A stretch of DNA of 21,159 nucleotides, taken from IMG/VR virus record IMGVR_UViG_3300045738_000776, positions 1 to 21,159 of that record; one strand, given 5' to 3'. Positions 6,786 through 12,708 of the stretch are shown piece after piece (positions within the stretch are counted from its first letter, which is position 1; every line of letters begins with the position of its first letter). The notes beneath the pieces were generated by a model. That model saw only the letters and a list, made by a program, of their open reading frames with translations. It made no database searches and was not told where the DNA came from. Source of the stretch: a virus. Position numbers and translations under genes: made by a program.

Positions 6786-7019
6786 CTAATACCCATACTT
6801 TTTAAGAAGCTTTCTAAGTTCAGGATCGTTTTTTTTACTTTTTTGGATGTGGTCACGCATATCATCATAAATATCATCTGCATCTTTAGTAAGTTTTTGT
6901 AACACTGGATCAAATTTTAATACTTTAATAACTCTCTTGGCTTGTCCTTTTCCTATAGCAGAAAAAATTCCTCCAAAAAGTTTATCCAGTACTCCTTCCT
7001 TAATAATGTATCTTGGCAT
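6786..7019 (-). CDS. Small basic protein of 77 aa, function unknown
   Basis: The protein is short, soluble and lysine-rich: an N-terminal PRYIIKEGVLDKLFGGIF segment followed by predicted helices (about residues 20-75) ending in LLKKYGY. The ATG at 7019 follows GGAG by eight bases. It lies between the gp26-like gene and the tape measure gene and is read in the same direction. I do not recognise a named family. The position suggests a small tail-assembly factor or tape-measure partner, which is inference. A 115-base gap separates it from the tape measure start. That gap holds only a weak 6-bp AT hairpin (around 6760-6775) and no credible gene. Confidence 0.7.
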   Translation of the reverse strand: MPRYIIKEGVLDKLFGGIFSAIGKGQAKRVIKVLKFDPVLQKLTKDADDIYDDMRDHIQKSKKNDPELRKLLKKYGY

Positions 7020-7086: not shown

Positions 7087-7326
7087 TTACTTTTTGACGT
7101 GCGGGGGCCTCTGAATAGAAGAAGATTTTTTGGATGCTTTATCATGAGCAGCTTTCTCTTCTTTATATGATTTTTCTAGTTGTTTTATGTAAAAACGCCG
7201 AATGAATATCGGCATAGTATACACCTCTGAATGTGTAAAACCACCTTTACCATAAAAGCAAAGTTGATATATTTCAGTGTGTATTGTAGGTCTATCTTCT
7301 GGCTGTAGGCCAAAAAAACTGTACGG
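7087..7326 (-). CDS. Start-less overlapping frame, predicted C-terminal extension of the gp26-like protein made by +1 frameshift
   Basis: After a TGA at 7329-7327 this frame stays open for 79 codons to a TAA at 7089-7087. It has no ATG in its first 37 codons and overlaps the end of the gp26-like gene by 35 bases. The protein looks real: after the overlap come a GLQPEDRPTIHTEIY stretch, an FYGKGGFTHSEVYTMP segment, IRRFYIKQLEKS and a charged lysine-rich tail. From memory this resembles the C-terminal part of gp26/gp51-type tail proteins that are a single frame in other T4-like phages. Relative to the upstream gene it is in the +1 (equivalently -2) frame, and both frames cross a T7 run, so slippage would give a fusion of about 328 aa. 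An internal ATG at 7215 with AGAGG eight bases upstream could also yield a 42-aa product. A homopolymer sequencing error is the main alternative. Confidence 0.65.
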   Translation of the reverse strand, partial: PYSFFGLQPEDRPTIHTEIYQLCFYGKGGFTHSEVYTMPIFIRRFYIKQLEKSYKEEKAAHDKASKKSSSIQRPPHVKK

Positions 7327-8074
7327 TCATGGGGACCGTTATCTCCTCATCATAGTTACAAAACTCACACGTAAATATATAAGTCATATCTACATCAGGA
7401 GTTATATTCCCTAGATGTTCTCGAAAGGCCATTGAATCTCTTGATAAAAATTCATTTTCTACAAAACTATTAACTTTAGTTCTATCTGTATCACCTTCAA
7501 CGGACAAAAGTGCCTTTTTTAACCGTGTAGTAACTTCAGATTCTACTGATGATTTAGCTGAAATTTTCTTTAATGCTTTAAGTTCGTTATCAACCTCTCG
7601 TTCATCTCTTTGAGTAAGAAGTTTAAATGTGATTGTTCGTTTTGAAGATGGAAGTTTAAATTCAAATTCATTCAATCCATTTTTAAAAATTGAATGATCT
7701 ACTTTTCTATCTTTTAAAGTTGTTAAATCAATACTATCTTGATTTCTTTCACTGCAAGAAGGGCAATTTGTTTCAAATTCATAATTTTTTCCATATCCCA
7801 ATACTCTTGCAGATACCATTAATGCATTCTTATCTCCAATAAGAATATCATCTAAATTAATAGATTCGTCAACAACTAAAGATTCCAATAACTTATCAAT
7901 CACAATTCCTCTGCGAATAAGATTTGGGGATGTTAAAATATCTTCCTCTCTTGCTGTCATATATTTTATCTCAATCTCTCCTTTTGATAAAGACGATTCT
8001 TTTGAATATAATGCCCCTTTTGAAGGCAAACTTACAATCTCAGTTGGAAACTGAGCTTTTTGTTTATCAGGCAT
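7292..8074 (-). CDS. gp26/gp51-like tail or baseplate hub assembly protein with Zn ribbon
   Basis: The zero-frame product has 260 residues. Residues 1-30 are polar and include FPTEIVSLPSKG. The segment about 32-70 (EIEIKYMTAREEDILTSP) is the typical start of the T4 base-plate assembly family as I remember it. Cys104/Cys107 (CPSC) and Cys236/Cys239 (CEFC) make a four-cysteine zinc ribbon. The ATG at 8074 follows AAGGAG by eight bases. In T4, gp26 and gp51 are needed to build the baseplate hub. In many other phages, a protein in this location chaperones the tape measure and is extended by ribosomal frameshift. Here the last codons read F-F-W-P-T-A-R-R-stop across a run of seven T, and the +1 frame continues into a plausible C-terminal domain. 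The next gene leftward is the 77-aa protein and then the tape measure. Family assignment is from memory of sequence style. Confidence 0.72.
   Translation of the reverse strand: MPDKQKAQFPTEIVSLPSKGALYSKESSLSKGEIEIKYMTAREEDILTSPNLIRRGIVIDKLLESLVVDESINLDDILIGDKNALMVSARVLGYGKNYEFETNCPSCSERNQDSIDLTTLKDRKVDHSIFKNGLNEFEFKLPSSKRTITFKLLTQRDEREVDNELKALKKISAKSSVESEVTTRLKKALLSVEGDTDRTKVNSFVENEFLSRDSMAFREHLGNITPDVDMTYIFTCEFCNYDEEITVPMTVQFFWPTARR
7312..7318 (-). other. Predicted +1 frameshift site: T7 run ending TTT-TGG
   Basis: The minus strand reads CAG TTT TTT TGG CCT in the zero frame. A P-site Phe-tRNA on the second TTT can slip forward one base and still pair with TTT, with the single-codon, often slow, Trp TGG in the A-site. 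Decoding then resumes at GGC in the frame that is open to 7087. The zero-frame stop follows five codons after the TGG. The geometry suits +1 slippage better than -1, because the -1 frame does not give a family-like protein. Confidence 0.55.
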
Positions 8075-8402: not shown

Positions 8403-8894
8403 TTAGAATTGTAGTATCGCGTAATCGTACCTTAATGTTAATGTTACATCTGCTGGATCAGTTGTATTTGACCAGTCTAAATCATTAAAGTTAGCATTTA
8501 CAATCCAAGTCCCCTTTAATGTCCATTCTTCTACTTTATCACCAACAGGTCCCAAAACATTAATGGTTACATCTTTCTTATAAAAATCCGAATATCCATC
8601 TCTACCAGTTACACTTTCATGAGATAACCGAACCCATTCCATTACTGCTTGTGCAGCAGAAGGAACAACTGGATCATATAAAGTAATTTCTAATTCTTCC
8701 CATGCACCTTTACCTTTAACATATCGTTTAACATTGATGTGATCAAGTTCAATAGTTTCAAAAGCTATTGAAGGTCTATTCGCTGTCTTAATAAGATAAG
8801 CGGGAATACCTTCAATGTACATGATATACCGATTTTTCGTTTTCGGTTCAAACGGTGTGAACATTATCTCTGAAGGATCTAACAAGTCTGGCAT
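8403..8894 (-). CDS. Tail tube protein, T4 gp19-like
   Basis: At 163 residues it has the same length as T4 gp19. It starts MPDLLDPSEIMFTPFEPKTK. The NRYIMYIEGIPAYLIK segment (about residues 22-37), the IELDHINVKRYVKGKGAWEE strand pair (about 48-67), the YDPVVPSAAQAVMEWVR segment and the final TLTLRYDYAILQF strand fit this tube family. The subunits form hexameric rings that stack into the inner tube through which DNA passes, around the tape measure. The ATG at 8894 has GGAG upstream. It is separated from the sheath gene by a strong terminator and has its own AT-rich upstream region, so it may be transcribed separately and more strongly than its neighbours, as expected for an abundant virion protein. 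Confidence 0.92.
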   Translation of the reverse strand: MPDLLDPSEIMFTPFEPKTKNRYIMYIEGIPAYLIKTANRPSIAFETIELDHINVKRYVKGKGAWEELEITLYDPVVPSAAQAVMEWVRLSHESVTGRDGYSDFYKKDVTINVLGPVGDKVEEWTLKGTWIVNANFNDLDWSNTTDPADVTLTLRYDYAILQF

Positions 8895-12306: not shown

Positions 12307-12708
12307 TTAATTCACTTTTTTCTTTATTTTTTCTACTTCTTCTTTTAATTCTTTAACTGATTCTATTAATAGTGGAATGATTCGTTTATAATCAACTCCT
12401 AAATAACCATTTTTTCTCTCTTGGACCACCTCTGGTAAAACTTTTTGAACTTCCTGTGCTATAACTCCAACATCGTGTCCTCTTTCTCGTGCCCAGCCAG
12501 GTGCTTTTTCATTCCAATCAAATTCTACACCACGAATACCATCTATTTTATCTAATGAACCTTTTATAACTTCTATATTATCTTTAAGTCTTATATCAGA
12601 TGTATAATATGCTACAACATCACCAGCAGCAACTACGTCTCCACTAGCAGAAACGTGTTTAAAAGAGGGACTACTTCCTGATACTACTACCTTTTTCCAA
12701 TTTGGCAT
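12307..12708 (-). CDS. Free-standing peptidase S74 intramolecular chaperone with fibre-type N-terminus
   Basis: Of 133 residues, about 36-133 are an S74 (endosialidase-type chaperone) domain: SDIRLKDNI with Ser37 and Lys42 in the spacing of the self-cleavage site, FDWNEKAP, GHDVGVIAQEVQKVLPEVV, DYKRIIPLLIESVKELKEEV, and a C-terminal coiled coil. In known phage fibres this domain sits at the C-terminus, drives trimer folding and then cuts itself off before the serine. Here almost nothing precedes it: residues 1-30 are a WKKVVVSGSS...SASG segment that matches the N-terminus of the 649-aa protein (WRKVIVSGSS...SASG). So the protein is an N-terminal anchor joined straight to a chaperone. It may act in trans on neighbouring fibre proteins, or be the collapsed remnant of a longer fibre. 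The ATG at 12708 has AGGAG upstream. Confidence 0.92.
   Translation of the reverse strand: MPNWKKVVVSGSSPSFKHVSASGDVVAAGDVVAYYTSDIRLKDNIEVIKGSLDKIDGIRGVEFDWNEKAPGWARERGHDVGVIAQEVQKVLPEVVQERKNGYLGVDYKRIIPLLIESVKELKEEVEKIKKKVN

What the first reader, a model, noticed from the sequence alone, without database searches (positions are those of the whole stretch)
7087..7330. Predicted programmed +1 frameshift in a gp26-like tail-assembly gene
The gp26-like gene ends F-F-W-P-T-A-R-R-stop across a run of seven T (7312-7318). The +1 frame opens just before that run, has no early start codon, and encodes 74 further residues that read like the missing C-terminal domain of the family. TTT-TTT-TGG allows perfect re-pairing of the P-site tRNA after a +1 slip in front of a Trp codon. 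Tail-assembly chaperones of many phages use frameshifting (lambda G/GT is -1, Mu is reported as -2), so +1 use in a T4-type Zn-ribbon protein would be unusual.
Basis: partly seen in the sequence, partly recalled or inferred. Interest (0 to 1): 0.78.

Follow-up and report, generated by a model that had tools for sequence, protein, structure and literature searches.

The report
+1 frameshift in T4-type tail chaperone
A virus of bacteria appears to make a short and a long form of a tail-building helper protein by having ribosomes slip forward one base at a run of seven T; the same arrangement is kept in over two hundred related sequences, whereas phage T4 uses two separate genes for this job.

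Summary
The 0-frame gene (7292-8074, minus strand, 260 aa) is a T4 gp26-type protein (PF12322) between tail tube and tape measure. It ends FFWPTARR-stop across the only T7 run on the coding strand. The +1 frame has no start codon before the slip and encodes 74 more residues. In 318 non-identical relatives the extension is in the +1 frame in 224, the -1 frame in 91, and 3 have an in-frame TGA. At 222 assigned +1 sites the codon before the slip is TTT (213) or CTT (9), never TTC, and the next is nearly always TGG or TAC. Sites with no long T run argue against transcriptional slippage as the general mechanism, and seven sites do not fit a -2 shift. By profile comparison the +1 extension matches the -1 extension of cyanophages, and that matches the C-terminus of T4 gp51. 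So this is most likely a tail assembly chaperone (short = gp26-like, long = gp51-like) made by programmed +1 frameshifting. Chaperone frameshifting is well known, and -1 in T4-like phages has been reported. The +1 branch, its spread, and the change of direction within one family appear new. No product has been measured.

The parts
7292..8074 (-). 0-frame gene: short chaperone form, gp26-like, 260 aa with stop TAG at 7292-7294
   Evidence: PF12322 35.9 bits (cut-off 24.5) and phrog_150 5e-13; confident fold, pLDDT 89.9, best viral match SP-15 baseplate hub subunit
7312..7318 (-). T7 run; codons TTT TTT then the first base of TGG; the inferred slip moves the P-site Phe tRNA from 7315-7313 to 7314-7312
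   Evidence: sequence; P-site TTT or CTT at 222 of 222 assigned sites, TTC at none; +1 re-pairing at 221 of 222
7310..7312 (-). A-site codon TGG, presumed slow to decode
   Evidence: TGG at 175 and TAC at 42 of 222 sites; slowness is inferred
7090..7311 (-). +1-frame extension, 74 codons, C-terminal domain of the long (gp51-like) form; stop at 7087-7089
   Evidence: 44 close pairs: differences at codon positions 1/2/3 of 230/134/649; three-helix model, pLDDT 87.5; profile links to -1 extensions and on to gp51
8403..8894 (-). tail tube gene (gp19-like), upstream neighbour
   Evidence: PF06841 32.7 bits
9093..11831 (-). tail sheath gene
   Evidence: PF04984 and PF17482
2858..6670 (-). putative tape measure gene, 1270 aa, downstream after one small ORF (6786-7019)
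   Evidence: weak match to a tape measure family, E 0.002, plus position and length; assignment inferred

Best explanation
The gene is a T4-type tail assembly chaperone that makes two proteins. Most ribosomes (inferred) read the 0 frame and stop, giving the 260-aa gp26-like form. A fraction pause with Phe-tRNA on the second UUU in the P site and the UGG codon in the A site. The P-site tRNA then slides one base forward onto the next UUU, and translation continues at GGC in the +1 frame, giving a 328-aa gp51-like form with an extra helical domain. By analogy with lambda G/GT, the shared domain would coat the tape measure protein and the extra domain would recruit tail tube subunits, so the ratio of the two forms matters for assembly. 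Shown: the two frames, conservation of the slip site, coding selection on the extension, and its homology. Inferred: that the product is made, in what amount, and what it binds.
For: 318 non-identical contexts: 224 with the extension in +1, 91 in -1. P-site codon TTT 213 or CTT 9, TTC 0, although TTC makes up 475 of 2,027 Phe codons in the gene bodies. +1 re-pairing at 221 of 222 sites. The +1 frame has the codon-position signature of a protein gene. No conserved start codon. Gene lies between tube and putative tape measure. Extension matches the cyanophage -1 extension at 96%, E 3e-9, and that matches gp51 at 98%, E 2e-12.
Against: No peptide, reporter or ribosome-profiling data. No clear stimulatory element. 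Direct similarity of the +1 extension to T4 gp51 is weak (10%, E 0.003), and HMM matches of the fused family to T4 gp26/gp51 are not significant. Chaperone binding partners were not tested. LIS04 (L087) does not re-pair at the assigned P site and would need to slip one codon earlier.
Confidence: 0.87

Rival explanations
1. Transcriptional slippage: RNA polymerase drops one U or adds two at the T7 run, so a share of the mRNAs is in frame for the extension.
For: Seven T at 203 of 222 sites; such runs can slip.
Against: 14 +1 sites have a longest T run of only 3 or 4, including TTT CTT TGG and TTC CTT TGG in at least four separate places of the tree. It is not excluded for the window itself.
Confidence: 0.05
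2. A -2 ribosomal slip, which reaches the same frame and adds one more Phe.
For: -2 re-pairing is possible at 215 of 222 sites, the window among them.
Against: Seven sites, including TTC TTT TGG, TTC CTT TGG, TTC TTT CGT and AAC TTT CTA, do not allow -2 re-pairing.
Confidence: 0.04
3. The downstream frame is a separate small gene with its own start, as it is annotated in several phages.
For: A start-like codon (ATG, GTG or TTG) lies in the +1 frame near the site in 123 of 222 relatives; short 'gp51' genes are annotated in cyanophages and rhizobial phages.
Against: 99 of 222 have no start-like codon there, and ATG occurs in only 53. The window has none before the internal Met of the extension. 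Conserved FFGL begins at the slip site itself.
Confidence: 0.04
4. A sequencing or assembly error in a homopolymer splits a normal single gene.
For: Homopolymers are error-prone; the two frames would join with one base changed.
Against: The same out-of-frame arrangement occurs in 224 non-identical relatives from many metagenomes and in isolates immuto, Mel-JY01, SP-15, LIS04 and GXN1, and the 0-frame stop is kept 3-7 codons downstream.
Confidence: 0.01

Closest known systems
T4 gp26 and gp51 (PF12322; named tail assembly chaperones of T4-like phages by Vladimirov et al. 2022, known here only through citing papers)
   Same: Same family; short form corresponds to gp26, long form to gp51, with a related C-terminal domain.
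   Different: T4 encodes the two forms as two full genes; here one gene with a +1 slip.
Cyanophage, rhizobial and Aeromonas 65.2 gp26 plus short 'gp51' (S-RIM8, phiM9, OLIVR6, 65.2)
   Same: Same family, extension starting at the same FF position, homologous extension.
   Different: Extension is in the -1 frame at T TTT TTC or T TTT TTG.
Lambda G/GT tail assembly chaperone (review PMC5009743)
   Same: Two overlapping frames before the tape measure gene; short and long forms made by frameshifting.
   Different: -1 slip; no sequence relation shown here.
Halovirus HF1-like and HSTV-2 chaperone genes (PMC7230728, PMC5009743)
   Same: Predicted +1 slip in a myovirus chaperone; the TTT CGC site resembles GXN1's TTT CGT.
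   Different: Archaeal host; sequence relation not tested.
RF2 (prfB) programmed +1 frameshift (own knowledge)
   Same: P-site CUU or UUU slides +1 onto UUU before a slow A-site codon.
   Different: A-site codon is Trp or Tyr, not a stop; no Shine-Dalgarno-like stimulator is evident in the window.

Membership tests
T4 gp26/gp51 chaperone family (PF12322) | Profile match above the curated cut-off | tested here: met
   35.9 bits against cut-off 24.5; phrog_150 5e-13
T4 gp26/gp51 chaperone family (PF12322) | Long form carries a gp51-type C-terminal domain | tested here: met
   Linked through the cyanophage -1 extension, 96% then 98%; the direct comparison is weak (10%, E 0.003); fused product reaches phrog_150 position 278 of 282 but gains only about one bit
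T4 gp26/gp51 chaperone family (PF12322) | Two separate full genes, as in T4 itself | tested here: not met
   One gene with an overlapping +1 frame; this feature is not shared by the wider family
Tail assembly chaperone of G/GT type | Overlapping frames with a conserved slip site, between tail tube and tape measure genes | tested here: met
   the tape measure assignment is partly by position
Tail assembly chaperone of G/GT type | Binds tape measure and tail tube, absent from the virion, two forms in a fixed ratio | not testable with these tools
   Needs biochemistry and proteomics
Programmed +1 ribosomal frameshift | Conserved P-site codon able to re-pair one base forward | tested here: met
   221 of 222 sites re-pair; TTC never in the P site
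Programmed +1 ribosomal frameshift | Slow A-site codon or stimulatory element | tested here: inconclusive
   A-site TGG 175 and TAC 42, speed not measured; no structure in the window (z 0.03) and a weak family mean; upstream SD-like signal weak and not corrected for relatedness
Programmed +1 ribosomal frameshift | Fused product observed | not testable with these tools
   No proteomics or reporter data available

The most novel reading that the evidence does not exclude
Within one homologous gene family the direction of frameshifting flipped during evolution at the same pair of Phe codons: +1 on TTT TTT TGG in one large group, -1 on T TTT TTC in cyanophages, rhizobial phages and a huge-phage group. 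T4 relatives do without slipping by keeping two genes. What selection preserves would then be the pair of products, not the mode of slipping.
Probability: 0.75. Interest if true: 0.62.

Novelty: new variant of a known kind. Interest (0 to 1): 0.55.

Why it matters
A 2016 review lists T4 as the exception among long-tailed phages whose tail chaperones are made by frameshifting (PMC5009743). A large, mostly uncultured branch of the same family uses a forward slip at a very simple, strongly conserved site. That gives hundreds of natural variants for working out what a bacterial +1 site needs, and a case of one gene family using +1, -1 or two genes for the same pair of proteins. It also offers an explanation for the short 'gp51' genes annotated in cyanophages (noted as about 20% of normal length in PMC3037559), and for short ORFs annotated next to this gene in SP-15, immuto and Mel-JY01: pieces of frameshift extensions.

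Tried and rejected
Downstream RNA structure as a stimulator: window z 0.03, family means -0.90 (+1) and -1.26 (-1), not convincing. Shine-Dalgarno-like stimulator: -4.18 against -3.59 kcal/mol for synonymous shuffles, p 0.007 but not corrected for relatedness, and none by eye in the window. Direct HMM match of the fused family to T4 gp26/gp51: not significant; single-sequence hhalign to gp51 gave low probability. A mixed alignment of separate domains (A6) misaligned the short rows and was not used. No solved structure resembles the 0-frame domain; the HK97 chaperone 2ob9 appears only at E 3.8. Structural matches of the extension are weak (best E 0.008). The Vladimirov et al. paper was not held, so what it says about +1 could not be checked.

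Full report
Observation. On the minus strand the ORF 8074-7292 encodes 260 aa ending MTVQFFWPTARR-stop. The last codons are CAG TTT TTT TGG CCT ACA GCC AGA AGA TAG. The T7 run (7312-7318) is the only T run of 7 or more on the coding strand of the whole window. The +1 frame opens a few codons upstream, has no start codon before the run, and continues for 74 codons past FF to a stop at 7087-7089. The sequence details in the finding are right.

What the gene is. The 0-frame product matches PF12322 (T4_baseplate, 35.9 bits, cut-off 24.5) and phrog_150. T4 gp26 and T4 gp51 both match the same two families. Order on the coding strand: tail sheath, gp19 tail tube, this gene, one small ORF, putative tape measure. 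The tape measure assignment rests on a weak profile match plus position and length. A similar order (sheath, tube or tail completion protein, this gene, tape measure) is annotated in the Flavobacterium immuto phage, LIS04 and SP-15. The AlphaFold model of the 0-frame domain is confident (pLDDT 89.9), and its best viral structural match is the SP-15 baseplate hub subunit, TM 0.81, E 2.6e-19. No solved structure matches.

Relatives. A first scan gave 80 viral contigs at 97-50% identity. Nearly all have TTT TTT TGG CC followed within a few codons by a 0-frame stop, and a long +1 frame starting FFGL. Profile and cyanophage scans raised this to 318 non-identical contexts: the extension is in the +1 frame in 224, the -1 frame in 91, and 3 belong to a group with an in-frame TGA. 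At 222 assigned +1 sites the P-site codon is TTT (213) or CTT (9). The A-site codon is TGG (175), TAC (42) or TAT (1), with CTA, CAC, CGT and AGT in four distant members. TTC never occurs in the P site, although it makes up 475 of 2,027 Phe codons in the same genes. The window's own gene has 13 TTT and no TTC, so that contrast comes from the family, not from the window. The 0-frame stop lies 3-7 codons after the P site. At the -1 sites the heptamer is T TTT TTC (86) or T TTT TTG (1), with four not fitting the search pattern.

The extension is coding. In 44 non-overlapping pairs of close relatives, differences fall at +1-frame codon positions 1, 2, 3 as 230, 134, 649, with 513 synonymous and 281 non-synonymous codon changes. 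The extension alone folds with pLDDT 87.5 into three helices. A start-like codon in the +1 frame near the site is absent in 99 of 222 relatives, and ATG is present in only 53, so independent initiation cannot be the general route.

Which kind of slip. A +1 slip of the P-site tRNA re-pairs at 221 of 222 sites; a -2 slip fails at seven. Fourteen sites have a longest T run of 3 or 4, which makes transcriptional slippage an unlikely general mechanism, though neither it nor -2 is excluded for the window by itself. CTT in the P site occurs in at least four separate places of the tree (L231, L209, L036, L082) and recalls the RF2 site CUU UGA (own knowledge). The Streptococcus phage GXN1 site TTT CGT matches the TTT CGn motif discussed for haloviruses (PMC7230728). 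No stimulatory structure or upstream element is clear.

Relation to T4. Profile comparison links the +1 extension to the cyanophage -1 extension (96%, E 3e-9), the cyanophage extension to the C-terminus of T4-like gp51 (98%, E 2e-12), and the +1 extension to a huge-phage -1 extension (98.5%, E 2e-15). The direct +1 to gp51 comparison is weak (10%, E 0.003). T4 gp26 covers phrog_150 to position 235 and gp51 to 280 of 282. The window's 0-frame product reaches 234 and its fused product 278, although this adds only about one bit. So the short form most likely corresponds to gp26 and the long form to gp51.

Evolution. A tree of 106 clusters at 65% identity, plus the window and T4, needs three changes of direction, and well-supported branches force at least two. 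The position of long branches, T4's above all, is unsure. One of the three changes rests on a single odd contig (L300).

What is known. Chaperone frameshifting is classical and was called widespread 'except T4' in a 2016 review, which also calls +1 very likely in halovirus HSTV-2 (PMC5009743). A 2022 paper by Vladimirov and others identified T4-like chaperone genes and, by its title, suggests a mechanism other than frameshifting; it was not held here. Citing papers say some T4-like phages carry a short gene and a longer fusion gene (PMC10274946), and that poly-T -1 signals occur in T4-like chaperone genes (PMC12846349). My searches turned up no paper reporting +1 in this family, but hits were mostly judged from titles and abstracts and the library lacks most subscription journals.

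Verdict. A real, conserved arrangement best explained as programmed +1 frameshifting in a T4-type tail assembly chaperone, on comparative evidence only. It is a new variant of a known kind: the family and the strategy are known; the +1 branch, its breadth, and the change of direction within one gene family appear new.

Noticed in passing
L016:3403-3405; same place in L017-L021, L024, L078: The 0-frame chaperone gene carries one in-frame TGA at a fixed place where relative L022 has Trp (NEYSWTLP against NEFS*TLP), suggesting TGA read as Trp; the slip site still uses TGG. The neighbouring 168-aa ORF has no TGA.
   Followed up: partly
L300, end of the chaperone gene: Slip region reads TTC TTC TGG, which cannot slip +1, and the extension lies in the -1 frame inside the +1 clade. 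Could be a change of direction or a one-base error.
   Followed up: partly
L086 (LR756511, 595 kb) and L176, L179, L185, L205: A huge-phage group keeps the extension in the -1 frame; where read (L086, L179), the site is T TTT TTC.
   Followed up: partly
L081, L082, L088, L090, L091, L092: In Mel-JY01, immuto, SP-15, S-RIM8, phiM9 and OLIVR6, short genes annotated next to this one (hypothetical or 'baseplate hub assembly catalyst') appear to be parts of the frameshift extension.
   Followed up: partly
window 12307-12708 (minus): A small ORF with SDIRLKDNIEVI...GVEFDWNE reads like a tail-fibre intramolecular chaperone domain (Peptidase_S74 type); from memory only, not tested.
   Followed up: no
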